From Eubacterium sp. (GTDB lineage Bacteria; Bacillota; Clostridia; Lachnospirales; Lachnospiraceae), in assembly GCA_017541035.1 (NCBI GenBank), contig JAFXZW010000010.1, forward strand, positions 1-37,820: 37,820 nucleotides of DNA. Direction: 5' to 3'. A model generated the notes under the pieces. It made no database searches. It saw only the letters and a program-made list of their open reading frames with translations, and was not told where the DNA came from. The position numbers and the translations under genes were made by a program. Below are positions 3,529-34,517 of the stretch, piece by piece; position 1 is the first letter of the stretch, and every line of letters starts with the position of its first letter.

Positions 3529-5628
3529 CTAAACACACATGAGGATTTTTCCGTAGCTGGGAACCGGCCAGTATTTTCCGGTGGTCAGCATCTCGGCTGC
3601 ATCCACATATCCGCGAAGGGTGCTCATGCGCGGAAGAACCTCATCACGGATCAGTTCAGATGTCCTGATCACGTCATCGATCTCCTTCAGCTTTGCCAGT
3701 TCCTCCTCCAGATCCGTTACCGCATCCATAATACTGTCTGTCAGATCTGTCAGCTTCTCAATGGTAGAGATCTCATATTTGCATTTCACATTTTCACTGA
3801 TATTCTTAATGGACTCCACCGCGCGGGCCAGAGTGTAAAGATACTCCTCGATAGCGGGCAGGTAATCCTTGCGGACCATATCCACCATGGTAAGGCCTTC
3901 GATATTGACCGTCTTGTTATAATTCTCCAGCATGATCTCACAACGGCTCTTCAGCTCTGCTTCCGTAAATATCTTATGCTCCGTGAGCATCTTCACATTC
4001 TTCTCATCCAGCAGCTTCGGCATGGCATCCGGGGTTGTCTTCAGGTTCAGAAGACCGCGTACCTCTGTTGCTTCCTTAACCCATTCATCTCCGTATCCGT
4101 TTCCGTCGAAAAGGATTCTCTGATGATCGGTGATCACGCGTTTGATCAGGTTATGAAGAGTGCTTTCGAAATCAGCCGCTCCTTCCAGCTCATCCGCATA
4201 CTGACGAAGACTTTCGGCTACGGAAGCATTCAGCATAATATTTGCGCAGGCAATACTGTTTGAAGAACCGAGGGAACGGAATTCAAACTTATTTCCGGTG
4301 AAGGCAAAAGGCGACGTACGATTCCGGTCTGTTGTATCCCGGGAGAATCGGGGGAGGGCATGCACGCCCAGCTTCATGGTGACTTTCTCCACTCCCTCGT
4401 AGGGGGTATCATTTTTGATGGCATTCAGAATGCCGGTCAGTTCCTCGCCGAGGAATACGGAAATGATGGCCGGAGGCGCTTCGTTGGCACCCAGACGATG
4501 ATCATTTCCCGCCGTAGCAACAGACAGACGGAGCAGATCCTGATAATCATCCACTGCCTGGATCACGGCGCAGAGGAACAGAAGGAACTGTGCATTCTCA
4601 TAAGGTGTCTCACCCGGGGACAGAAGGTTCACGCCGGTATCTGTAGCGATGGACCAGTTATTGTGCTTGCCGGATCCGTTGACACCTGCAAAGGGCTTCT
4701 CATGGAGCAGGCAGACAAGGCCATGGCGCTTGGCCACTTTCTGCATGATCTCCATGGTCAGCTGATTATGATCGGTTGCAATATTGGTTGTGCTGTAGAT
4801 CGGAGCCAGCTCATGCTGCGCAGGAGCCACTTCATTATGCTCTGTCTTTGCAAGGATACCCAGCTTCCAGAGCTCCTGATTCAGATCCTCCATATAAGCT
4901 GTGATCCGCGGCTTGATCACACCAAAGTAATGATCATCCATTTCCTGTCCCTTCGGAGGACGTGCACCGAAAAGAGTCCGTCCTGTGTACATCAGATCAG
5001 GACGCTTATCAAACATCTTCTGATCGATCAGGAAATACTCCTGCTCCGGTCCTACACTGGTGGATACATGCTTCACATCATCATTTCCAAACAGCTTCAG
5101 CACGCGCATAGCCTGACGGTTCAAGGCCTGCATGGAACGAAGCAGAGGTGTTTTTTTATCCAGAGCTTCTCCCGAATACGAACAGAACGCAGTAGGAATG
5201 CACAGTGTATGATCCTTGATAAAAGCATAGGATGTGGGATCCCAGGCTGTATAGCCCCTTGCCTCAAATGTAGCCCTGAGTCCGCCGGAGGGGAAAGACG
5301 ATGCATCCGGTTCACCCTTGATCAGCTCCTTGCCGGAGAACTCCATCAAAACACCCCCGTCGCCCGTCGGCTCGATAAAGCTGTCATGCTTCTCTGCCGT
5401 AACGCCGGTAAGTGGCTGAAACCAGTGTGTGAAATGAGTCGCCCCCTTTTCTATGGCCCATTTCTTCATTTCCTCAGCCACAGCCTCAGCGACCTTTTCA
5501 TCCAGACGCACATTTTCATCAATCGTCTTCTTCAGAGAGGAATACACTCCCTCCGAAAGGCGCGCGCGCATCTCACGTTCATCAAACACCAGTGAACCAA
5601 AGATCTCGGGCACATTTGTCTTTTCCAT
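3529..5628 (-). CDS. glnN: Glutamine synthetase type III
   Basis: ATP-dependent amidation of glutamate to glutamine in the cytoplasm. At 699 residues it has the usual length of the GSIII (GlnN) family, much longer than GSI. Diagnostic stretches are [17 protein letters not shown] in the middle, [10 protein letters not shown] before it, and [17 protein letters not shown] towards the C-terminal half. The ATG at 5628 follows AAGGAGGAG. The gene is 68 nt downstream of the amt-PII gene, with a palindromic element in the gap, and upstream of gltB. The three genes form the complete ammonium uptake and assimilation route. The family is unambiguous. Confidence 0.97.
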
Positions 5629-5696: not shown

Positions 5697-7457
5697 TCAC
5701 TCTACATCCTGAAGAGCATCATAGTTTTCTTCGCCGGTACGGATCTTGACTACACGGCTGACCGGATATACAAAAATCTTACCGTCACCGATCTTGCCGG
5801 TGTAAAGGGTCTTCTTTGCGGTTTCGATGACGCTGTCAACCGGGATACCGCTTACGACTACCTCCAGTTTGATCTTCGGTAGTAAGGTCATATCCATCTC
5901 AACTCCTCGATACATCTCCCCTGCACCCTTCTGGATACCGCAGCCGCTTACCTGTGTTACCGTTATTCCGGTTACCCCCAGCTGATTGAGGGCTCTCTTG
6001 ATCTTGTCATACCGCGAAAGCTTTGTAATGATAACCACTTTATTGATACCCGTATCCTGGATCACACCCGACATGGCAGCCGTTACATTCTCAACCGGAA
6101 CTGCCGCATTCCGTTTTGCCTCGCTGGCCTTGTCGTAATCGGACTCACCCAGGTTTGTATTCTCATTTTCACTCATCATAGCGCTGGACATATCCACGAT
6201 ACTGAAGCCTGAGTATGCGGATACAAGACCATGTTCTGTCAGATCCAGGCCTTCCAGCTCCTCTTCTTCGGAGACACGAAGTCCGAATATCTTTTTAATG
6301 ACCAGGAATACGATGATCATGCAAACAGCTGCCCATGCTGCAACTGCAACAAAGCCAATCAACTGCTTTCCAAGAAGCTCAAAGCCACCACCATAGAAGA
6401 GTCCCTGAAGTTCTGTATTTCCGGGAGCCGTAGTCGTTGCGAAAAGGCCGACTGCGATGGTTCCCCAGATACCGTTCAACATGTGAACCGCACATGCACC
6501 AACGGGATCATCGATATGAAGCTTGTAATCCAGAAGCCATACGCCGAAGATTACCAGAACACCGGCCACCGCACCGATCACGCTTGCTCCCAGTGCATCG
6601 GTTACATCACAGGGAGCCGTGATCGCCACCAGCCCTGCCAGAGATGCATTGAGACACATTGAAACATCCGGCTTACCGTAACGAATCCATGTGAAGATCA
6701 TGCAGACAACCGTTGCTACCGACGGTGCAATGGTCGTTGTTACAAATACACTTGCCAGCTGATCCGTTGATGTACATGCCGCACCGTTGAAGCCGTACCA
6801 GCCAAGCCAAAGAATGAAAACCCCCAGTGCACCGATCACAAGATTGTGACCCGGAAATGCGTTGACTTTGATGACCTTGCCATTTTCATCCCGTTCGAAC
6901 TTACCGATACGGGGGCCTACCATCTTAGCACCTACAAATGCTGCAATTCCGCCCACCATATGGATCGCGCAGGAGCCTGCGAAATCATGGAAGCCCATCT
7001 GTGCCAGCCAGCCGCCGCCCCAGATCCAGTGTGCTTCGATGGGATAGATCAATGCGGAAATGATGGCTGAGTATACACAGTAGCTGAGGAACTTGGTCCG
7101 CTCTGCCATGGCACCGGATACGATGGTTGCCGTGGTTGCGCAGAAAACAAGGTTGAAAATGAAGTTGGACCAGTCGAAATTCTCATACTGTGTGAAAATA
7201 TCGAAGCCCGGCTTTCCGATCAGGCCTACCAGATCCTCACCAAGTAAGAGACCGAATCCGATCAGGATAAATACTACACAACCGATACAGAAATCCATCA
7301 GATTCTTCATCAGGATATTCCCGGCATTCTTGGCTCTTGCAAATCCGGATTCCACCATGGCAAATCCGGCCTGCATCCAGAACACCAGCGCAGCTCCGAT
7401 CAGGAACCATACTGCGAAGAGTTCTCCGTTCACGTTGCTCATAATTTCGTCTAACAT
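5697..7457 (-). CDS. Ammonium transporter fused to a PII signalling domain
   Basis: Amt/Mep channel with a C-terminal GlnB/GlnK domain in one chain of about 586 residues. The Amt part shows FAMVESGFARAKNAGN near the N-terminus, and the twin pore histidines in DFAGSCAIHM and AVHMLNGIWGT. After an acidic linker, the last ~115 residues match PII: KRALNQLGVTGITVTQVSG, the T-loop, then TGKIGDGKIFVYPV and IRTGEENYDAL. The T-loop reads YRGVEM, so Tyr51, the site uridylylated in enteric PII, is absent; control is presumably by ATP/ADP and 2-oxoglutarate binding. The ATG at 7457 after GAGGGAAG fits the family N-terminus. An in-frame ATG at 7487 also has an upstream AAGGA and would add 10 residues. It heads the amt-glnN-gltB block. 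Confidence 0.95.
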   Translation of the reverse strand: MLDEIMSNVNGELFAVWFLIGAALVFWMQAGFAMVESGFARAKNAGNILMKNLMDFCIGCVVFILIGFGLLLGEDLVGLIGKPGFDIFTQYENFDWSNFIFNLVFCATTATIVSGAMAERTKFLSYCVYSAIISALIYPIEAHWIWGGGWLAQMGFHDFAGSCAIHMVGGIAAFVGAKMVGPRIGKFERDENGKVIKVNAFPGHNLVIGALGVFILWLGWYGFNGAACTSTDQLASVFVTTTIAPSVATVVCMIFTWIRYGKPDVSMCLNASLAGLVAITAPCDVTDALGASVIGAVAGVLVIFGVWLLDYKLHIDDPVGACAVHMLNGIWGTIAVGLFATTTAPGNTELQGLFYGGGFELLGKQLIGFVAVAAWAAVCMIIVFLVIKKIFGLRVSEEEELEGLDLTEHGLVSAYSGFSIVDMSSAMMSENENTNLGESDYDKASEAKRNAAVPVENVTAAMSGVIQDTGINKVVIITKLSRYDKIKRALNQLGVTGITVTQVSGCGIQKGAGEMYRGVEMDMTLLPKIKLEVVVSGIPVDSVIETAKKTLYTGKIGDGKIFVYPVSRVVKIRTGEENYDALQDVE

Positions 7458-7651
7458 AGATCTTCCCTCTCTTTCCGGCGATGCCATTCATATCCTTACG
7501 CTTCACAGACCGGATTGAGAGGTGCGGCGCCGGCGAACGCTCCGTAGCCCCGGATCTGCGAAACGCCATTGCATCGCTAATTCGATATATCCCGTTCTGA
7601 CTTCCGGCGGCTGTAAGGCTGCCGGGAAACACCTTCCGGGAATAAAAGAAA

Positions 7652-11525: not shown

Positions 11526-13067
11526 TCAGACACCTGTCTCTACCGTAGCCGTGGCTGTCTGATCCCGAAAACGCACATCGTGCTCCACCAACAGCATGGT
11601 CGGCTTAAAATCACGGATCAGCTTCTCGATCTGCATACGCGAGAAAACATCGATGAAGTTCAGCGGTTCATCCCAGATATATAAATGTGCCGGAGTGATA
11701 AGGCTTGCAGCGATCAGCACCTTTTTCTTCTGGCCTTCCGAAAAATCCTGCATCTGCTTGGTGAACTGTTCCCGTCCGAAATCCAGACGCCGCAGGACTG
11801 CCAGAAGAAGGCTCTCGTCAAGCCCCCTGTCTCTGCAGAATTCCCGCAATGTTCCCGCAAGAAAAGAAGTATCCTGATTAACATAAGAGATAATCAGACC
11901 CGCAGCTACCTCCAGTGTGCCTGATACGATCAACCCGGTATCGGTTTTCCCGCCGTTCTTTCTCTCTGCTTCCTGAAGGATTGCCGAAAGAATACTGGAC
12001 TTTCCGCAGCCGTTCGGTCCACTCAATACAACTCTGTCACCTCTCCTCACCTGAAAGCATAAGCCATGGAACAGTTCCCGTTCCGCGCCCTCATAACGAA
12101 GCGAAAGATCAGACACATGAATCAGAACCTCCTTGTGAAAGGAAAGCGGATTCAGCTTCAGATCCACCACCCTTTCCACATCCTGCAATAATCCCTCCTT
12201 TTCCTCGATCTCACGGTCGATCCTTTTTTCATAGGACTTTACCCTGGCCTGCATTTTCTTTGTCTTTGCTCCGATATAGGAGCGGGTGGAAATGTTCCTT
12301 TCCGGCTCTTTGAGCGGATCAAAACCGATCTTCGTACTTTCATTTTTATCCGCCCAGCGTGAGCTGCGATCCACAGCCGCCTTCAGTTTTCCGATTTCCT
12401 TCTTGTGTTTCTCATTTTCTGCCTCAGCAAAGGCATCGTTTTTCTCTTTGTTCTCCCACCAGGAAGAGAAGTTCCCTGTCTGAACCTCTACGGTCTTTCG
12501 GTTCAGTACCAGAACATGGTCACAAACACCATCCAGGAGATCCCGGTCATGAGACACCAGAATAAAACCTTTTTTCTTCGACAGATATTTCTTTACAATC
12601 TCTCTTGCTGTCTGATCCAGATGGTTGGTTGGTTCATCGATCAGGAGGAATTCATTTTCTCCTGCAAAAAGAACAGCCAGCATTACACGTGTTCTTTCGC
12701 CAAAGCTGAGTGTTCCGAAGGGGCGATACAAACACTCCGCATCCATCCCGATCTGATCCATCTGTATCAATATCTGCCAGGGCTCCACATCCGGTTTCCA
12801 CGTCTCTGTCAGTTCATCCGCCGTCTTTTCAAGATCCTTTTCAGAAACCGGGTACGGAAAATAATCAAATCCCGTACTTGTTGTTATACTTCCTTCCGCT
12901 TCACATTCTCCATGAAGCAGACGCAGCAGGGTGGTCTTTCCCTTTCCGTTCCGCCCGATCAGCCCCAGCTTCCAATCGGTATCAATATTAAAATTCACAC
13001 TTTCCAGAACCGTATCTGCCGTTCCTTCGTATGAAAATGTAAGATCGCTTACTTTGATCTGTGCCAT
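11526..13067 (-). CDS. ABC-F ATPase of the Lsa type (ribosome protection)
   Basis: Soluble twin-ATPase protein of 513 residues with no membrane segments. The first domain has GRNGKGKT, LSFGERTR and DEPTNHLD. The second has GPNGCGKS, FSEGQKKK and the unusual WDEPLNFIDVFSRMQIE, which is typical of Lsa/Vga-like ABC-F proteins. The interdomain linker (~190-310) is charged and helical, as expected for the arm that reaches the ribosomal P site. Lsa-group proteins protect the ribosome from lincosamides, streptogramin A and pleuromutilins; whether this one does is inferred. The ATG at 13067 follows GGCGGTGA. A long leader with a terminator upstream suggests drug-inducible attenuation. Confidence 0.88.
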   Translation of the reverse strand: MAQIKVSDLTFSYEGTADTVLESVNFNIDTDWKLGLIGRNGKGKTTLLRLLHGECEAEGSITTSTGFDYFPYPVSEKDLEKTADELTETWKPDVEPWQILIQMDQIGMDAECLYRPFGTLSFGERTRVMLAVLFAGENEFLLIDEPTNHLDQTAREIVKKYLSKKKGFILVSHDRDLLDGVCDHVLVLNRKTVEVQTGNFSSWWENKEKNDAFAEAENEKHKKEIGKLKAAVDRSSRWADKNESTKIGFDPLKEPERNISTRSYIGAKTKKMQARVKSYEKRIDREIEEKEGLLQDVERVVDLKLNPLSFHKEVLIHVSDLSLRYEGAERELFHGLCFQVRRGDRVVLSGPNGCGKSSILSAILQEAERKNGGKTDTGLIVSGTLEVAAGLIISYVNQDTSFLAGTLREFCRDRGLDESLLLAVLRRLDFGREQFTKQMQDFSEGQKKKVLIAASLITPAHLYIWDEPLNFIDVFSRMQIEKLIRDFKPTMLLVEHDVRFRDQTATATVETGV

Positions 13068-13543: not shown

Positions 13544-13870
13544 TCAAGCCAGTGCACGATCAATTGCCTTAGCCAGCTGATCCGCGCAGGATGTGCCCCG
13601 GTTCTGACAATCATTACCGCGTAGAATATCTGCGATTTCCGCGGCCGGTTTGCCCTCCACAAGTTTTCCGATGGCTTTCAGATTCCCGTTGCAACCACGA
13701 ATGTATTTCAGATTATGAATACGATCCTCGCTATCCAGATCAAAATCGATCTGCTGGGAGCAGACGCCCTGCGGAGTAAAGGTAATGTGTCTCATTTCCG
13801 TCTCAACCTTAATCTCAGGATAGGCAAGATTTTCAGAATTGAATGATACATGAATTTTATTTCCGTCCAT
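13544..13870 (-). CDS. TSCPD domain protein (TIGR03905-like)
   Basis: 108 residues. The core from Met26 (MRHITFTPQGVCSQQIDFDLD, continuing to GCNGNLKAIGKLVEG and NRGTSCADQLA) matches the small TIGR03905 TSCPD family, named for a conserved Thr-Ser-Cys-Pro-Asp motif. Here it reads TSCAD, a Pro to Ala change. Family members are often about 80 residues, so the first 25 are extra. AGGAGG seven nt before the ATG at 13870 still favours that start over Met26, which has no clear ribosome site. The domain also occurs in some ribonucleotide reductases; the function of stand-alone copies is unknown. Confidence 0.85.
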   Translation of the reverse strand: MDGNKIHVSFNSENLAYPEIKVETEMRHITFTPQGVCSQQIDFDLDSEDRIHNLKYIRGCNGNLKAIGKLVEGKPAAEIADILRGNDCQNRGTSCADQLAKAIDRALA

Positions 13871-14004: not shown

Positions 14005-15192
14005 CTAAATCATGTTGATGAACAAAGTGATCCCAAGGCTATTGATAAAATCCGCAAACATACCTCCCACGATCGGTATCAGTATATAAGCCTTCACTGA
14101 TGTTCCGAATTTGTCTGTAACAGCCTGCATATTTGCCATGGCGTTAGGTGTGGCACCCATTCCGAAGCCACAGACGCCCGCCGTTAATACCGCTGCATCA
14201 TAATCCCTTCCCATCACATAGAATACAATAAAACGTGCAAAAAGGTACATTAAAACTGTCTGAACTGCCAGAAGTATGATCATGGGCAAAGCCAGATCCG
14301 CTAACTTCCATAGCTTTAGTGTGATCATTGCTATCCCAAGGAAAAGAGATAATGCAATACCGCCAAGGTCATTGATCTCTCCCATATGGATCGTAATCTT
14401 TTTCGAGCGATCGCATACATTCCGTATGATCGCCGCAACGATCAATGCTCCGATGTAAACCGGGAAAGTCATACCCATCCTGGAAAGCAGCCAGGATACC
14501 CCCGTTCCCAGTCCCATGGCTATGGCCAGCTGATAAGTTGCTCCGGCATACATGCTGACATCGCGTTTATGGCTCTTCTCTTCTTCGATCAGAGTGGACA
14601 GATCTTCCTTCTTCTCCTTTTCCAGAAGATTGTATTTCCGGATCAGACGCTGGGCAAGCGGTCCACCCATCAGCGACCCTGCAACCAGGCCGAAGGTCGC
14701 GGCTGCAGTACACACCGTTGTCGCTCCCTGAAGCCCGAAATCCTCAAGGATCGGGCCGAAAGCTCCCGCCGTTCCATGCCCGCCGATCATCGGAATGGAC
14801 CCCGTAGACAGACCAACCTTGGGATCAACCCCGATCATACCTGAGACAAGAAGGGAAGTACCGTTCTGCAGAAATACCAATACTCCGACAAGGAGAACGA
14901 GCAGCAAAAGATCGAGGCCGCCCTTTTTCAGGACTTTAACATTCGCCTGAAAACCGACAGACGTAAAGAATAACACCATGCAGATATTCTTTATCGTATC
15001 ATCGTAATCAATTTCCATACCGGTTGCGACATAAATGATTGTCATTGTAACCGCGTAAATCAGTCCTCCGACCACCGGTGCCGGAATACAAAATCTCTGG
15101 AGGATATTCAGTTTCTTTTTCAGCCATGCTCCGAACAGCAATACCACCGTAGCGATTCCAAGAGTCTGGTACATATCAAATGAGATATTCAT
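14005..15192 (-). CDS. gltS: GltS-type sodium/glutamate symporter
   Basis: 395 residues, the usual family length, with about ten hydrophobic segments in two inverted halves. Family stretches include IPAPVVGGLIYA near residues 36-47, GSIPMIGGHGTAGAFGP and CGFGMGATPNAMANMQAV. GltS imports L-glutamate with Na+; substrate assignment here rests on family. Its ATG overlaps the TGA of the TAXI gene by four bases (ATGA), with GGAGGG upstream, so translation is probably coupled. It is the last gene of the APC-GGDEF / TAXI / gltS operon. Confidence 0.92.
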   Translation of the reverse strand: MNISFDMYQTLGIATVVLLFGAWLKKKLNILQRFCIPAPVVGGLIYAVTMTIIYVATGMEIDYDDTIKNICMVLFFTSVGFQANVKVLKKGGLDLLLLVLLVGVLVFLQNGTSLLVSGMIGVDPKVGLSTGSIPMIGGHGTAGAFGPILEDFGLQGATTVCTAAATFGLVAGSLMGGPLAQRLIRKYNLLEKEKKEDLSTLIEEEKSHKRDVSMYAGATYQLAIAMGLGTGVSWLLSRMGMTFPVYIGALIVAAIIRNVCDRSKKITIHMGEINDLGGIALSLFLGIAMITLKLWKLADLALPMIILLAVQTVLMYLFARFIVFYVMGRDYDAAVLTAGVCGFGMGATPNAMANMQAVTDKFGTSVKAYILIPIVGGMFADFINSLGITLFINMI

Positions 15193-16211
15193 CTTGTACC
15201 CTCCTCTTCATCCTGACTGCCAAAGACAGATCCGTTTTTTCCGGACTCCTCCGCGGATACTTCAATGCCCTTTTCCTTCAGGTACTCTGCAGCTCCTTTA
15301 TGAAAAGGAATCGGTACATCTTCAGCTGCTGTTTCCGGTGCCAGATCCGTACCCGTTATGAGATTTCGATTCAGCTCATCAGCATGTTCAAAGATCTTTC
15401 CGGTCAGTTTCTTAACCTCTGCCTCATCCATACCATTTGCAACTACCAAAATGGCACGGACACCAATTGTCTGAATCTCTTCAGACAGCCCGGTATAGGT
15501 ATCTGCCGGGATCGTACATTTTCGGAATCCCAAATTGCATAACGCCAGAAAAGCGCGGATTTCTTCTTCCTTCAGTGACAGAAGTCTTATCTCACAATCC
15601 TCCGCCAGCTTCCCAATCAGTGGAGTCGGAGCACCGGCCATATAAAAGAAAGCATCGATGGTGCCTTCCTTCAAAGCCCCGGCAGCCTCCGAGGCGGAGA
15701 AATATTTCCGGGTGACTTCGCTTTTCATTATGCCGCATGCATTTAAAAGAGTCTCCGCATCCCATCGAACACCGGATTCCTCTTCACCGAGAGATACCGT
15801 TTTCCCCTTAAGCTCCTCCATACAGGTAATGCCCGAATCCTTTCGGACTACGATCTGAAGAGACTCCGTGTAGAGACCGGCTACAGCGCTGTAAGCGCGG
15901 TCAGACCACGCGGTGGCTTCCGCAAAAATACCTGTTCCCTCCTCCGCCTGCTGAAGAGTATCACTCTGTACAATTGCCGCATCAAGGAATCCCTTCTGCA
16001 GTAACCGGAGATTGGCACCGGAGCCCATAGTTACCTTTAGATTGAAGGCAAAATCATTTTTCAGTAATTCTGACAGCCGTTTTGAATAATCGTAATACAT
16101 TCCACCGGCATCACCTGTTCCTATACGTATTGTTTTCAAGCCATTCCCACATGCCGTCAGAACGCACACAAGGAACATGGTTATCAAAACAATGATCTTC
16201 CTTTTTCTCAC
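15189..16211 (-). CDS. TAXI family substrate-binding lipoprotein
   Basis: 340 residues with a lipoprotein signal: basic MRKRK, a hydrophobic core, and lipobox LTAC with the acylated Cys21. After that come RIGTGDAGGMYY, LLQKGFLDAAIVQSD and TPLIGKL, all typical of TAXI solute-binding proteins (TRAP-associated extracytoplasmic immunogenic). TAXI proteins normally deliver substrate to a fused DctQM-type TRAP permease; no TRAP permease gene lies in this window. Instead it is 11 nt after the APC-GGDEF gene and overlaps gltS, so its client may be GltS or the APC protein. The start is GTG at 16211, six nt after an AGGGGGG ribosome site. Family firm, ligand unknown. Confidence 0.9.
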   Translation of the reverse strand: MRKRKIIVLITMFLVCVLTACGNGLKTIRIGTGDAGGMYYDYSKRLSELLKNDFAFNLKVTMGSGANLRLLQKGFLDAAIVQSDTLQQAEEGTGIFAEATAWSDRAYSAVAGLYTESLQIVVRKDSGITCMEELKGKTVSLGEEESGVRWDAETLLNACGIMKSEVTRKYFSASEAAGALKEGTIDAFFYMAGAPTPLIGKLAEDCEIRLLSLKEEEIRAFLALCNLGFRKCTIPADTYTGLSEEIQTIGVRAILVVANGMDEAEVKKLTGKIFEHADELNRNLITGTDLAPETAAEDVPIPFHKGAAEYLKEKGIEVSAEESGKNGSVFGSQDEEEGTR

Positions 16212-16222
16212 ACCATTCCCCC

Positions 16223-18454
16223 CTACTCTCTGGTTACTGCCCCCATGCTCTTCAGTTGTTGCTTCCGCTCGTACATTAGTCCGTCCGCTCTCTTAAAAAC
16301 TTCGTGGAAGGATTCGTCTTTCCCCGGGTCGTAAATCGCTGTTCCGAGGGAGATCACCGCATTGTTACTGCCGATATTTCCTTCGATCTTTTCGTTGATT
16401 GCCGAAAGGATCTCATTTCTCTCATTGAAGTCATGTCCCTGAAGGATAACGACGAATTCATCTCCTCCGACACGGAAGACGGGACTGTGTTTGAAATACT
16501 CGCAGAGCATCATGCAGGCTGAACGGATGTACTCATCTCCGGCCTTATGACCCAGAGTATCATTAATTCTTTTCAAACCATTCACATCCCCGACAATGAC
16601 GCCGAACTCTCCCATATCTCCGTCCGTAATATGTGTCTCCATACTACCTTCATACACTGCGAAGGCGTGCTTACTCTTAACGCCTGTCAGCGGATCCTTA
16701 AATGCGGCATCCCGCGCCTGATCCCGTTCCTCAGCTGTCTTTTTCTCCCATTTATTCATGGATCGGTAATTCACGAACAAAACGGTAAGGGATAAAACGA
16801 ACAGGCCGGCAACCACCATAACACTGTTTGTATTTGCATCATGAAGCTTTGCCTTCTCATTTTCAAGAAAAGCTTCTCTGCTCATAGCCTGCATTTCACT
16901 GTCTGCCGTTCCTTCCATATAGCTTTCTATCTCATCCATAACCTTATCTTCCCTGCTGTCATTTATCCTTGACGCCAGGGTCAACGTTACCAACACGATA
17001 AAAACCAGGAGCGCGATCCAGACAATGATGGCTTTACCGAACTTCCTCGCATGGTCTTTACGGATGATACTGTTAAAGAAGAATATTCCAAGGATAGACC
17101 AGCCCGCTAGAAGCGCATAAGTCTCCGTTTCAATTGTATGATCGGAGAAAACCCCGGGAAGAAGAAGGACGGCCATGAAAAGAACAAGAATAGCGACACA
17201 GATGGCACTTAAAATATAGTCCTTCCTGCACTTCTCCTGCTTAGCGACTTTAAAAACCGCAACCGAAACAAAACCATAAATGATCGTAGCCCCTATGGTG
17301 GTTGTATCCACGATCCAACTGATGGTTGTTCTTCCAAGGAAGGGAATTGGGAGAGACATTAATACGATCAGCAGGATGGTATTGGCCGGAATCTGCTTAT
17401 TATTGAGCTTTGCAAAACGTCCGGGCAGGATTCCATCCTGGGCCACAGCATAGCAAAGGCGACTGGTCGCACGCAGCATACCGATCAGACTGGTCAGCAC
17501 AAGCGCCAAAAGAGACGCCATCAGGATATAAATACCGGCATCACCCATATAATAGCTGGCCGCATAGAATGCCGGGATACCTTCGATTCCATCAAAGCTG
17601 TCCAGGTGAGTGATATAGTCCAGCCAGCTGCTGCAGCTCTTCGGATAAGCCGAAACACTAAGAAGGATCGTAAAAATATAGAGTGCCGTCGTAATGATCA
17701 GTGAGATTACCAGAATGCGGAACAGTTTATTTTGCTTGAAATGACATTCCTCAGCGGAGTGGGATACACTTTCAAATCCGATAAAAGCCCATGGCGAAAT
17801 AAAAGCGATGCGGAATATCTGCTGAAAAGCATTCTTATCCGGGACAAAGGCCGGTTCCATCGACATTCCGGAATTTCCGTGTCCTGCCATAGCTGTCACA
17901 AAGCAGATCGTAATCCCAATGATAAATATCCCCACAAGAATAACCATGCACCGTGCCGTTGCTTTCTTGCTCTTTATACAAAGAACGGCAACCAGAATAA
18001 TAACGATAAGCGTAACAAGAGCTTCACCCAGATACACTTCATAACCGAAAATAGAATAGAGATATCCGAAGCTCAATGCCCGATTCAGGAAATATCTTGC
18101 GAAAAGAGGAATACTCGTGGCATTTGCCCAGAAAATGGAAATATAGATAAGAAACAGAAACCATGCTACCAAAAAAGCCCGGTCATAGCCGAAAACACAT
18201 TTCACATAGTTATACAGCCCTCCCACACCGGAGTAACGGTTTGCAAGAAAGCTGTAATGGCTGGCGACCATCAGCATCATGACGAAGCCGATCAGAAGCC
18301 CCAGGACAGAACCCATCAATCCGCCCGTTACAAGGTATGTTCCTCCGGTAACAACCAGAGATCCCCACCCGATGGCTGAGCCCACAGACAGTGCTACCAC
18401 CGCAGTTGGCGTTAGATATGGTTTCAAACCAATCTGCTTCGTATCCGTAGACAT
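16223..18454 (-). CDS. APC amino-acid permease fused to a GGDEF diguanylate cyclase
   Basis: 743 residues. Residues ~10-520 are an APC-superfamily transporter (about 12 membrane segments plus extra C-terminal ones), with SVGSAIGWGSLV in the first helix and FISPWAFIGFESVSHSAEE further on. A short charged loop (~525-560) and one more membrane helix lead to a GGDEF domain: DPLTGVKSKHAF near 586, VGDVNGLKRINDTLGHKAGDEYI, and intact RVGGDEF at 663-667. The metal and GTP-binding residues look present, so cyclase activity is plausible. No RxxD inhibitory site lies before GGDEF. The ATG at 18454 follows AAGGAGGA; the frame stays open to 18688, but that part is palindromic repeat. It heads an operon with the TAXI gene and gltS. 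The likely role is transport-coupled or transceptor-type c-di-GMP signalling, which is inferred. Confidence 0.88.
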   Translation of the reverse strand: MSTDTKQIGLKPYLTPTAVVALSVGSAIGWGSLVVTGGTYLVTGGLMGSVLGLLIGFVMMLMVASHYSFLANRYSGVGGLYNYVKCVFGYDRAFLVAWFLFLIYISIFWANATSIPLFARYFLNRALSFGYLYSIFGYEVYLGEALVTLIVIILVAVLCIKSKKATARCMVILVGIFIIGITICFVTAMAGHGNSGMSMEPAFVPDKNAFQQIFRIAFISPWAFIGFESVSHSAEECHFKQNKLFRILVISLIITTALYIFTILLSVSAYPKSCSSWLDYITHLDSFDGIEGIPAFYAASYYMGDAGIYILMASLLALVLTSLIGMLRATSRLCYAVAQDGILPGRFAKLNNKQIPANTILLIVLMSLPIPFLGRTTISWIVDTTTIGATIIYGFVSVAVFKVAKQEKCRKDYILSAICVAILVLFMAVLLLPGVFSDHTIETETYALLAGWSILGIFFFNSIIRKDHARKFGKAIIVWIALLVFIVLVTLTLASRINDSREDKVMDEIESYMEGTADSEMQAMSREAFLENEKAKLHDANTNSVMVVAGLFVLSLTVLFVNYRSMNKWEKKTAEERDQARDAAFKDPLTGVKSKHAFAVYEGSMETHITDGDMGEFGVIVGDVNGLKRINDTLGHKAGDEYIRSACMMLCEYFKHSPVFRVGGDEFVVILQGHDFNERNEILSAINEKIEGNIGSNNAVISLGTAIYDPGKDESFHEVFKRADGLMYERKQQLKSMGAVTRE

Positions 18455-18495
18455 GGATATTCGGTCCTCCTTTTCGTCAGTATTATATATAGCGC

Positions 18496-18704
18496 ATCGC
18501 GTCCCCTGCGCTTTGCGCAGGGCCATACACCTGCACTTCGTGCTATGCCATACACCTGCACTTCGTGCAGGTGTATGACTTATGTACCACGCTTTTGTTT
18601 CACAAAATCGTGCCCGGATGCCTTCGGCATCCGCGGCGCTGCTTCGCATCGCGTCCCCTGCGCTTCGCGCAGGGTCATACACCTGCACTTCGTGCAGGTG
18701 TATG
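18496..18704. repeat. Cluster of five perfect palindromes with TTC/TTT loops
   Basis: Hairpins at 18504-18522 (CCCTGCGC stem), 18549-18577 (CATACACCTGCAC stem, 13 bp), 18615-18633 (CGGATGCC stem), 18656-18674 (CCCTGCGC stem) and 18676-18704 (the 13-bp stem again). Stems are perfect with three-base loops. The block GCATCGCGTCCCCTGCGC followed by the CATACACCTGCAC hairpin is a direct repeat about 150 bp apart, with an extra half copy at 18526-18544. The cluster fills the predicted leader of the APC-GGDEF operon. Confidence 0.9.
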
Positions 18705-18708
18705 ACTT

Positions 18709-32684: not shown

Positions 32685-34517
32685 ATGGCAGACACTAAGA
32701 AGAAGCCGAATGTAAAAGCCCTTTTTCCCATCGCCCTTTTCCTGATCCTTTATCTCGGAAACGGCATATACTTCCAGTATATCCATCCGAAAGAAGGGGT
32801 AATGGGATTCTATGTGGTTTCGGTGGTTCTGGCATTTTCCATCGCACTTTTTTTCGCATTTTTGCAGAACCGGTCACTTACCTTTGACGAGAAGATCCAC
32901 GTATGTGCCAGGGGAATCGGTGACGACAATATCGTTGTCATGCTGTTTATCTTTATCCTGGCCGGCGCCTTCAGCGGTATCGCGGGGGCGGCAGGAGGAG
33001 CCGACAGTACGGCAAATTTTCTTCTCAGTATCATCCCCGGACGATTTGCGGTCCCGGGCATTTTTCTCATTTCCTGTCTGATCTCCATGTCCATGGGAAC
33101 AAGCGTGGGAACCATCACGGTGCTTGTGCCGATCGCAGTTGCACTGGCTGAAAATGGCGGGCTTCCCAAGACCCTTCTGATTGGTGTCGTGGTGGGCGGT
33201 GCGATGTTCGGAGATAATCTTTCCTTCATTTCCGATACAACAATCGCTGCGACGAAGACACAGGGCGTGGACATGAAGGACAAATTCCGTACGAATATCC
33301 GGGTGGCTCTGCCGGCGGCGGCCATAACCCTTGTTATCCTGATCATCTATGCCATCGTCAGCGAAGGTAGAATCACCGGTGAATTCCACTATAATATCTG
33401 GCAGACCCTGCCTTATTTCGTCGTGCTGATCCTGTCCGTGCTGGGGCTCAATGTCTTTCTGGTTCTCTTCTCCGGTTATTTTCTTTTTATGCTGGTGGGC
33501 TTTTTCACCGGTACCCTGTCCTATTCCTCGGCCCTGGCCTCCACGGGCAGCGGAATCTCCGGTATGTTTGAGACCATGCTCGTAACCATCCTTGTGGCGT
33601 CTATTGCGGCGCTGATGAAAGAGAACGGCGGCTTTGCCTATATTCTTTCCCTGATCCGACGAAAGGCAGGATCAAAGCGGGGCGGAATGTTCGGGATTGC
33701 CTTCCTTACGTCATTTATGGATATCGCAACGGCCAACAATACGGTGGCTATCGTCATCGCAGCCCCCATTGCCAAAGATATCAGCCGGGAATACGGCGTA
33801 GAGCCGCGAAAAGTTGCCTCTCTTCTGGACACCTGCTCCTGCATTACCCAGGGGATCATCCCCTACGGCGCACAGCTTCTTGTGGCAGCGAATCTGGCCG
33901 GTCTGGCCAGCTTCAGTCTGATCCCATTCCTCATCTATCCTTTTATTCTCATCCTGTTTGTGGTGATCTCCATCGCAAGGGAGAAAAATGAACGGGTACA
34001 ACTGTTTGATAAGATCCCTACCCTGAAGGGAAAGCGGGTGACACTGAAAAAAGTCACGCTGGATGATGCTGCAGGGCTTCGCGAGCTCACGGAAAATGAT
34101 CAGGTGTATCGCTATCTTCCCACATTTCTTTTTGAAAAGAAGTATGAGGATCCCTCTTATGTGATCAGTCACCTCTACGACCTCAAAGACTCCTTGATCC
34201 TGGGTATCTATGTAGAGGGGCAATTCGCGGGACTGGCAGAATTCTATGGCTATCGAGGCGATCTCAACAAGGTCAGCGTCGGTTACCGCCTTCTGGAACG
34301 GTACTGGGGGCAGGGAATCGCCACAGAAGCACTGTCACTGATGGTCCGCTATCTTAGCGGGGAGATGAATCTCGAGATCATCACCGCCAGTACCATGGTG
34401 GAAAATCAGGCCTCAGCTGCGGTTCTGAAAAAGAACGGATTTACTCTTGTTACTCATGCCGCCGAAGAGGATTGGGGGTTTGAAAAACCTGTTTCTGCTG
34501 ACAAGTGGATACGATAG
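32685..34517 (+). CDS. NhaC-type antiporter fused to a GNAT acetyltransferase
   Basis: 610 residues. Residues 1 to ~430 are an NhaC-family Na+/H+ antiporter with about 11 membrane segments: GTSVGTITVLVPIAVAL and GAMFGDNLSFISDTTIAAT are the conserved family motifs, with SFMDIATANNTVAIV in the second half. From ~446 (LKGKRVTLKKVTLDDA) to the end is a complete RimJ/RimL-type GNAT domain, with RYWGQGIATEAL as the acetyl-CoA loop and MVENQASAAVLKKNGF. The single open frame shows no break at the junction. AAGGAG is 11 nt before the ATG. The ion specificity and acetylation target are unknown; a cytosolic C-terminal location fits the topology. Confidence 0.9.
   Translation: MADTKKKPNVKALFPIALFLILYLGNGIYFQYIHPKEGVMGFYVVSVVLAFSIALFFAFLQNRSLTFDEKIHVCARGIGDDNIVVMLFIFILAGAFSGIAGAAGGADSTANFLLSIIPGRFAVPGIFLISCLISMSMGTSVGTITVLVPIAVALAENGGLPKTLLIGVVVGGAMFGDNLSFISDTTIAATKTQGVDMKDKFRTNIRVALPAAAITLVILIIYAIVSEGRITGEFHYNIWQTLPYFVVLILSVLGLNVFLVLFSGYFLFMLVGFFTGTLSYSSALASTGSGISGMFETMLVTILVASIAALMKENGGFAYILSLIRRKAGSKRGGMFGIAFLTSFMDIATANNTVAIVIAAPIAKDISREYGVEPRKVASLLDTCSCITQGIIPYGAQLLVAANLAGLASFSLIPFLIYPFILILFVVISIAREKNERVQLFDKIPTLKGKRVTLKKVTLDDAAGLRELTENDQVYRYLPTFLFEKKYEDPSYVISHLYDLKDSLILGIYVEGQFAGLAEFYGYRGDLNKVSVGYRLLERYWGQGIATEALSLMVRYLSGEMNLEIITASTMVENQASAAVLKKNGFTLVTHAAEEDWGFEKPVSADKWIR

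What the first reader, a model, noticed from the sequence alone, without database searches (positions are those of the whole stretch)
14005..18454. Operon of APC-GGDEF fusion, TAXI lipoprotein and GltS: a candidate amino-acid uptake and c-di-GMP signalling unit
Three genes on one strand with an 11-nt gap and a 4-nt overlap encode an amino-acid permease carrying a diguanylate cyclase, an orphan TAXI binding lipoprotein and a glutamate symporter. Each family is known, but together they suggest a single device. The lipoprotein captures an amino acid outside, one or both carriers import or sense it, and the cyclase turns occupancy into c-di-GMP. Glutamate as ligand is inferred from GltS.
Basis: partly seen in the sequence, partly recalled or inferred. 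Interest (0 to 1): 0.82.

Follow-up and report, generated by a model that had tools for sequence, protein, structure and literature searches.

The report
Permease-built sensor beside a glutamate importer
A bacterium with relatives in ruminant guts carries, next to a known type of glutamate importer, a signalling enzyme whose sensor part is a whole amino-acid permease; relatives of that permease head drive several different signalling outputs, while the pairing with the importer was seen in this genome only.

Summary
The three genes are real and laid out as described. The "single device" reading is not supported. TAXI-GltS is a published transporter class (PMC12344293). All six mutated glutamate-site residues of VcGluP are present in this TAXI. 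APC-GGDEF has its own history: none of 24 other loci was found beside TAXI-GltS (downstream DNA short in some), and in a one-contig genome the two lie about 1 Mb apart. It belongs to a clade (100/100) in which one permease head carries GGDEF, GGDEF-REC-GGDEF-EAL, or a hybrid histidine kinase. In 16 of 16 same-genus kinase loci tested an Hpt gene lies just upstream; in this genome REC-GGDEF-EAL is there too. Outputs swapped on a pocket with invariant residues suggest that the APC head is a sensor, like CbrA or Ks-Amt5. Six paper searches for such fusions listed no description. Ligand binding and cyclase control by the APC head are inferred.

The parts
16223..18454 (-). APC permease-diguanylate cyclase fusion: 12-TM APC head (about residues 16-463), TM13 (about 473-497), outside loop (about 498-543), TM14 (about 544-562), then a connecting stretch and GGDEF (585-734)
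   Evidence: Pfam; hydropathy; family alignment; trees
15189..16211 (-). TAXI solute-binding lipoprotein, predicted L-glutamate binder
   Evidence: Pfam/NCBIfam; PDB matches 8s4j and 1us4; site residues Y39 S64 Q82 E116 Y190 M191; conservation
14005..15192 (-). GltS sodium/glutamate symporter
   Evidence: beside TAXI in 14 of 14 same-genus genomes with GltS
13544..13870 (-). TSCPD (TIGR03905) protein, conserved third gene of the TAXI-GltS cassette
   Evidence: directly beyond GltS in 11 of 14 same-genus TAXI-GltS loci

Best explanation
Two modules lie side by side. (1) TAXI-GltS(-TSCPD) is a glutamate importer of the published TAXI-GltS class: the lipid-anchored TAXI protein captures L-glutamate and hands it to GltS, which carries it in. 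(2) The APC-GGDEF protein is a permease-derived sensor (transceptor). An amino acid bound in the APC pocket shifts its conformation; helices 13-14 and the following stretch pass this to the GGDEF domain, which makes c-di-GMP. In this species the sensor gene sits in front of the importer genes with operon spacing, so they are probably made together, but the sensor does not need the importer: elsewhere the two live apart. Shown: gene layout, families, TAXI site residues, cassette conservation, one clade of signal-fused APC heads with swapped outputs, clade-specific invariant residues. Inferred: ligand binding by the APC head, its effect on the cyclase, co-transcription, glutamate hand-over.
For: TAXI-GltS adjacent in 14 of 14 same-genus genomes with GltS, TSCPD next in 11 of 14. 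All six VcGluP site residues present in this TAXI; Y39, S64, Q82, E116 in 14 of 14 loci. 45 signal-fused APC heads form one clade, 100/100, apart from 14 unfused or dehydrogenase-fused APCs. The same head carries GGDEF, GGDEF-REC-GGDEF-EAL, or HisKA-HATPase-REC. D91, W109, A110 (44 of 44 filled rows) and W222, E228, T386 (45 of 45) are invariant in the fused heads and absent from all 14 others. A 13th and 14th helix follow the head in all three proteins examined, one of each architecture; of 22 kinase-type rows, 15 align to P0001 up to residue 580-584 and 7 stop at 489-500. An Hpt gene lies just upstream in 16 of 16 same-genus kinase loci tested; in this genome that locus also holds REC-GGDEF-EAL. 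GGDEF (663-667) and D623, N625, D632 are invariant in 17 of 17 aligned rows.
Against: No structure or assay. The APC head keeps the canonical TM1 and TM6 substrate regions, so it may still transport. The missing equivalent of GkApcT Lys191 is missing in unfused relatives too and so does not argue for receptor function. Uncorrected co-occurrence of APC-GGDEF with TAXI-GltS (5 of 8, p 0.012) leaves a functional tie possible. The trio might exist in genomes not held; three of the four other short-form loci of the scan have contigs that end 169-601 nt downstream. In CbrA, the model for the analogy, the ligand did not change kinase activity in one study (PMC7096432).
Confidence: 0.72

Rival explanations
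1. One reading: TAXI captures glutamate, GltS and/or the APC domain import or sense it, and the cyclase reports occupancy; all three work as one complex.
For: Operon spacing of 11 nt and a 4-nt overlap; TAXI site fits glutamate; uncorrected co-occurrence p 0.012.
Against: 0 of 24 other APC-GGDEF loci beside TAXI-GltS; none of 12 other TAXI-GltS loci with 1.3 kb or more of upstream DNA has APC-GGDEF in front; about 1 Mb apart in the one-contig genome G002; published TAXI-GltS is described without a third partner (PMC12344293); correction for relatedness leaves no evidence.
Confidence: 0.1
2. APC-GGDEF is a working transporter with a cyclase hung on it: transport and cyclase are not coupled, as histidine did not measurably change CbrA kinase activity in P. 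putida.
For: TM1 and TM6 substrate regions retained; CbrA transports histidine while its kinase activities were not affected by it (PMC7096432, passages read).
Against: Output modules swapped on a conserved head with TM13-TM14 and invariant residues suggest selection for coupling.
Confidence: 0.2
3. The adjacency is accidental: the sensor gene arrived by transfer and landed in front of the importer, with no regulatory meaning. (This can be true together with the best explanation.)
For: Closest APC head is L112 at 73%, from a sheep MAG, while the nearest genome by recA path, G058, has an APC-GGDEF of 47-48%; G017, in the same recA clade, has TAXI-GltS-TSCPD without APC-GGDEF in front.
Against: A purine-rich ribosome-binding stretch for TAXI follows the APC-GGDEF stop codon directly (letters), which fits a working operon; base composition of the gene is like its neighbours.
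Confidence: 0.35

Closest known systems
TAXI-GltS transporter class (BP0402/BP0403; Jaques et al. 2025, PMC12344293; abstract, sections 17 and 18 and passages read)
   Same: TAXI binding protein beside gltS with overlap, glutamate as ligand; the paper also reports conventional-size TAXI beside gltS, and fusions of which the majority are in Lachnospiraceae
   Different: Here TAXI is conventional in size and precedes GltS; a TSCPD gene follows; an APC-GGDEF gene stands in front, in this genome only as far as seen
VcGluP, TAXI binding protein of Vibrio cholerae (8s4j; PMC11574862, passages read)
   Same: All six mutated glutamate-site residues are present in the window TAXI
   Different: VcGluP serves a TRAP membrane component, not GltS
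CbrA, SLC5-STAC-PAS-histidine kinase transceptor (PMC13022988 and PMC7096432, passages read)
   Same: LeuT-fold amino-acid transporter domain fused to a signalling output
   Different: Different transporter family, STAC linker instead of TM13-TM14, kinase output, Pseudomonas
Ks-Amt5 ammonium sensor kinase (PMC5764959, passages read)
   Same: Transporter domain turned into a receptor; the paper says it binds but does not translocate ammonium, and ammonium regulates the fused kinase
   Different: Amt fold, trimeric, kinase output; the word GGDEF does not occur in the main text
GkApcT, proton-coupled amino-acid transporter (5oqt; PMC5803215, passages read)
   Same: APC family, TM1/TM6 substrate regions alignable
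   Different: No signalling domain; Lys191 and Glu115 not kept here, the TM6 Asp is Glu, Phe231 is Trp

Membership tests
TAXI-GltS transporter class | TAXI binding protein above family cut-off | tested here: met
   TIGR02122 251.7 bits against 84.35
TAXI-GltS transporter class | Adjacent gltS, overlapping or near, conserved | tested here: met
   4-nt overlap here; TAXI beside GltS in 14 of 14 same-genus genomes with GltS
TAXI-GltS transporter class | Glutamate-site Tyr and Gln kept | tested here: met
   Y39 and Q82; 14 of 14 loci
TAXI-GltS transporter class | Binding protein-dependent glutamate uptake | not testable with these tools
   needs transport assay
Diguanylate cyclase | Intact GGDEF motif and active-site region | tested here: met
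   GGDEF 663-667, DVN 623-625, ND 631-632 in alignment A1; no RxxD at the usual inhibitory-site place (residues 654-657 read FKHS; place of the motif recalled)
Diguanylate cyclase | c-di-GMP synthesis | not testable with these tools
   needs assay
APC amino-acid permease | APC family match with TM1 GxG and TM6 substrate regions | tested here: met
   AA_permease_2 119.1 bits against 27; GkApcT alignment
APC amino-acid permease | Transport activity | not testable with these tools
   needs assay
SLC5/STAC sensor kinases (CbrA, CrbS) | SLC5 domain | tested here: not met
   Pfam gives AA_permease_2 and AA_permease, no other transporter family
SLC5/STAC sensor kinases (CbrA, CrbS) | STAC linker | tested here: inconclusive
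   no STAC family among the Pfam matches, but I did not check that the library holds a STAC model; TM13-loop-TM14 stands in its place

The most novel reading that the evidence does not exclude
A family of bacterial amino-acid receptors, not described in the papers I could search, built from whole APC permeases in Bacillota related to ruminant-gut species: one sensor head (12 TM plus TM13-TM14) has been joined to a diguanylate cyclase, to a cyclase-receiver-phosphodiesterase chain, and to a hybrid histidine kinase with a partner Hpt. Six of 61 same-genus genomes, this one included, hold both a kinase and a cyclase form, so one amino-acid signal would reach c-di-GMP directly and through a phosphorelay.
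Probability: 0.5. Interest if true: 0.72.

Novelty: new variant of a known kind. Interest (0 to 1): 0.52.

Why it matters
Few transporter-kinase fusions (CbrA, Ks-Amt5) are characterised, and how a transporter cycle becomes a signal is open. A family in which nature has already swapped the output on one APC head gives matched constructs: the same sensor with a cyclase and with a kinase. It would also give bacteria such as this one, with 34 GGDEF matches in its genome, an amino-acid input into c-di-GMP. For the importer, the genus survey adds a conserved third gene (TSCPD) to TAXI-GltS.

Tried and rejected
Single device of three proteins: rejected as the main reading for lack of conserved adjacency and lack of a tree-corrected association.

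Loss of the GkApcT Lys191 and Glu115 equivalents as proof of a non-transporting receptor: rejected, because the 14 unfused or dehydrogenase-fused relatives lack them too.

Foreign base composition of APC-GGDEF as a sign of recent arrival: not seen (GC 0.466, GC3 0.519 against a mean GC3 of 0.527 for 22 window genes). Promoter and terminator scans gave no more sites than shuffled sequence (9 against 8.7; 5 against 4.9), though one 10-of-12 promoter-like site lies upstream of APC-GGDEF (18738-18709). The hairpin repeats upstream are not a genome-wide element (two places).

Structure and complex prediction were not possible. GltS has no sequence match among solved structures at E 0.01.

Six were aimed at APC-GGDEF or APC-kinase fusions: 20 of 267 papers listed; 25 of 146; 20 of 37; 9 of 9; 12 of 218; none found. 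None of the listed titles or abstract starts describes such a fusion; the lists are capped, and most subscription journals are not held. One search was for TAXI-GltS, 59 for GkApcT, 83 for Amt5-type sensors, 84 for TSCPD.

Rows left out before counts: the tree leaves out two partial matches (L055 of G043, L056 of G026), frameshifted L125, partial L128-L130, and loci that repeat a gene already in (L143-L148, L151, L152, L156-L159). The kinase-type genes of G046, G051, G058 and G060 were not fetched, nor a second, contig-cut one of G042, and that of G020 is cut by a contig end, so the Hpt test covers one locus in each of 16 of the 21 genomes with a kinase-type match. Neighbour lists use a crude ORF caller that missed the TAXI of L131 and called some spurious ORFs; TAXI, GltS and TSCPD places were therefore taken from tblastn. 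At order level 29 of 295 genomes match the APC region at 1e-25; outside the genus I opened eight long-frame loci: four signal-fused (L168-L171), four dehydrogenase-fused by eye (L172-L175).
Full report
OBSERVATION. Family assignments are above curated cut-offs for AA_permease_2, GGDEF, NMT1_3, Glt_symporter, TRAP_TAXI and gltS. Two things were missed: a TSCPD gene (13544-13870, same strand) belongs to the cassette, and the reading frame of APC-GGDEF is open upstream to 18688, although the ATG at 18454 gives a protein of the same length (743 aa) as the relative L114 from its ATG (744 aa).

THE IMPORTER. TAXI-GltS is not new: Jaques et al. 2025 (PMC12344293; abstract, sections 17 and 18 and passages read) describe it as a class of binding-protein-dependent transporter, with conventional-size TAXI genes beside gltS in several organisms and fusions of which the majority are in Lachnospiraceae; they say the functional coupling needs to be verified by experiment. 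In the 61 same-genus genomes held (own included), GltS is found in 14 at E 1e-60, and each has a TAXI gene directly upstream, of 40-71% identity in the 13 others. Five more same-genus genomes have a TAXI match of 34-37% and two a weak one (E 2.8e-5 and 2.5e-4), without GltS. The TSCPD gene follows GltS in 11 of the 14 loci; none is found near two (L140, L141), and the contig of the third (L101) ends 707 bases beyond GltS. The window TAXI matches VcGluP 8s4j at 3.7e-35. The six residues that Davies et al. mutated (Y45, S75, Q93, E125, Y200, M201; PMC11574862, passages read) are all present: Y39, S64, Q82, E116, Y190, M191. The first four are kept in 14 of 14 loci, while the places of Y200 and M201 vary. 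In that paper Y45A and Q93A were the severe mutants. Glutamate as ligand is thus well supported without GltS.

THE SENSOR. P0001 has 12 APC helices, a 13th (about 473-497), a loop of about 46 residues and a 14th (about 544-562) before the GGDEF domain (hydropathy only). GGDEF at 663-667 and the DVN and ND residues are invariant in 17 aligned rows. Relatives fall into three architectures: short APC-GGDEF (window, L111, L112, L114, L116, and L168 from another family of the order); long APC-GGDEF-REC-GGDEF-EAL, frames of about 1330-1490 residues; and APC-HisKA-HATPase-REC, frames of about 940-1130 residues. Pfam confirmed the domains of one long form and two kinase forms; the others were classed by motif. 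The second GGDEF of the long form lacks the motif in the five same-genus proteins that I read by eye (L033-L037). In L114 the pieces are separate: REC-GGDEF-EAL, an Hpt gene and APC-GGDEF in a row. All 16 same-genus kinase loci tested (of 21 genomes with a kinase-type match) have an Hpt match within about 300 bases upstream, one of them cut short by the contig end; three kinase loci outside the genus gave no Hpt match. In the window's own genome the kinase locus (L149) reads HK-REC, REC-GGDEF-EAL, Hpt, APC-HK-REC on one strand. Two long-form loci, L119 and L126, have an Hpt match at or just beyond the gene's end.

On a tree of 59 APC domains the 45 signal-fused heads (25 GGDEF, 19 kinase, 1 cut by a contig end) form one clade, 100/100, and the 25 GGDEF heads one clade within it, 100/100 (the quick tree agrees). 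The tool warns of long branches, among them the outgroup and the three kinase rows from outside the genus. Six residues (D91, W109, A110, W222, E228, T386) are invariant in all filled fused rows and absent from all 14 others; P294 is near-invariant (44 of 45). W222 and E228 align with GkApcT Phe231 and Asp237; that paper puts Phe231 at the substrate and Asp237 below it (PMC5803215 passages). I read this as a shared ligand pocket with changeable outputs, hence a sensor head. A counter-result: the GkApcT residues Lys191 and Glu115 are missing, but they are missing in unfused relatives as well, so loss of transport is not shown.

ARE THE TWO ONE DEVICE? In the same genus 8 of 61 genomes have APC-GGDEF and 14 have TAXI-GltS; 5 have both. 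Two genomes with partial APC matches (G043, G026) are not counted. Only the window's genome has them adjacent. In G002, a single contig, they lie at 2.578 and 1.560 Mb; in G017, G035 and G058 on different contigs; G051, G046 and G060 have no GltS. Of the 20 loci from the genome-contig scan none shows TAXI or GltS at 1e-10; 17 have the APC match, and 13 of these have at least 1.5 kb beyond the gene, two about 0.6 kb and two under 0.2 kb (from the coordinates). Some of the 17 may be the same species as unnamed same-genus genomes, so the 24 are not surely 24 species. Twelve of the 13 other TAXI-GltS loci have 1.3 kb or more of upstream DNA and none has APC-GGDEF in front; G057 has a kinase-type APC about 7 kb away. 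Fisher tests without correction give p 0.012 for APC-GGDEF and 0.004 for any fused APC against TAXI-GltS (0.010 with the two partial matches), but on a recA tree of 57 of the 61 genomes (four gave no usable recA) only 4-5 independent pairs differ in TAXI-GltS and nothing can be concluded. So the triad is, on what is held, special to this species. Its 11-nt spacing and the purine-rich letters right after the stop codon still make joint expression likely here.

HOW IT MOST LIKELY WORKS. TAXI binds glutamate outside and passes it to GltS (class published, step inferred here). The APC head binds an amino acid; its shift moves TM13-TM14 and sets the GGDEF dimer (inferred, by analogy with CbrA, PMC13022988 and PMC7096432, and Ks-Amt5, PMC5764959; passages of each read). 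For CbrA of P. putida the ligand did not change the kinase activities, which is a warning for the analogy; Ks-Amt5 shows ligand control. The neighbourhood also holds glutamine synthetase III and an ammonium transporter with a P-II domain, so nitrogen is a plausible theme, not a proof.

NOVELTY. TAXI-GltS: known. APC-GGDEF and APC-kinase: not described in the titles and abstract starts listed by six searches, in a library that lacks most subscription journals. Transporter-derived sensors as a kind are known, so I call this a new variant of a known kind.

Noticed in passing
window 5697-7487 (-) and 3529-5628 (-): Ammonium transporter fused to a P-II domain, directly beside a type III glutamine synthetase: another transporter-regulator fusion in the same window.
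   Followed up: no
window 32685-34517 (+): One frame matching Na+/H+ antiporter and a GNAT acetyltransferase domain.
   Followed up: no
window 11526-13067 (-): ABC-F protein over the ribosomal-protection-like family cut-off (NF000355), under the cut-off of the Lsa resistance family.
   Followed up: no
window 18493-18706: Two exact copies of a 31-base palindromic hairpin (18549-18579, 18676-18706) and a 51-base direct repeat (18493-18543, 18645-18695, 96%) just upstream of APC-GGDEF; no other place in the genome matches the hairpin at up to 3 mismatches.
   Followed up: partly
L149:6068-12521 (-), own genome contig 99: Second APC sensor of this genome: HK-REC, REC-GGDEF-EAL, Hpt and APC-HK-REC in a row.
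   Followed up: yes
L152:9951-13451 (+): Gene right after an APC-kinase gene with family-3 solute-binding, PAS and GGDEF domains: a further amino-acid-to-c-di-GMP candidate.
   Followed up: no
L172, L173, L174, L175: APC permeases whose frame continues into what looks by eye like an iron-dependent alcohol dehydrogenase; a branch apart from the sensors.
   Followed up: partly
L076, L081 (G018, G047): TAXI matches of 34-36% with open frames of about 995 residues (one stop noted inside each) in genomes without GltS.
   Followed up: no
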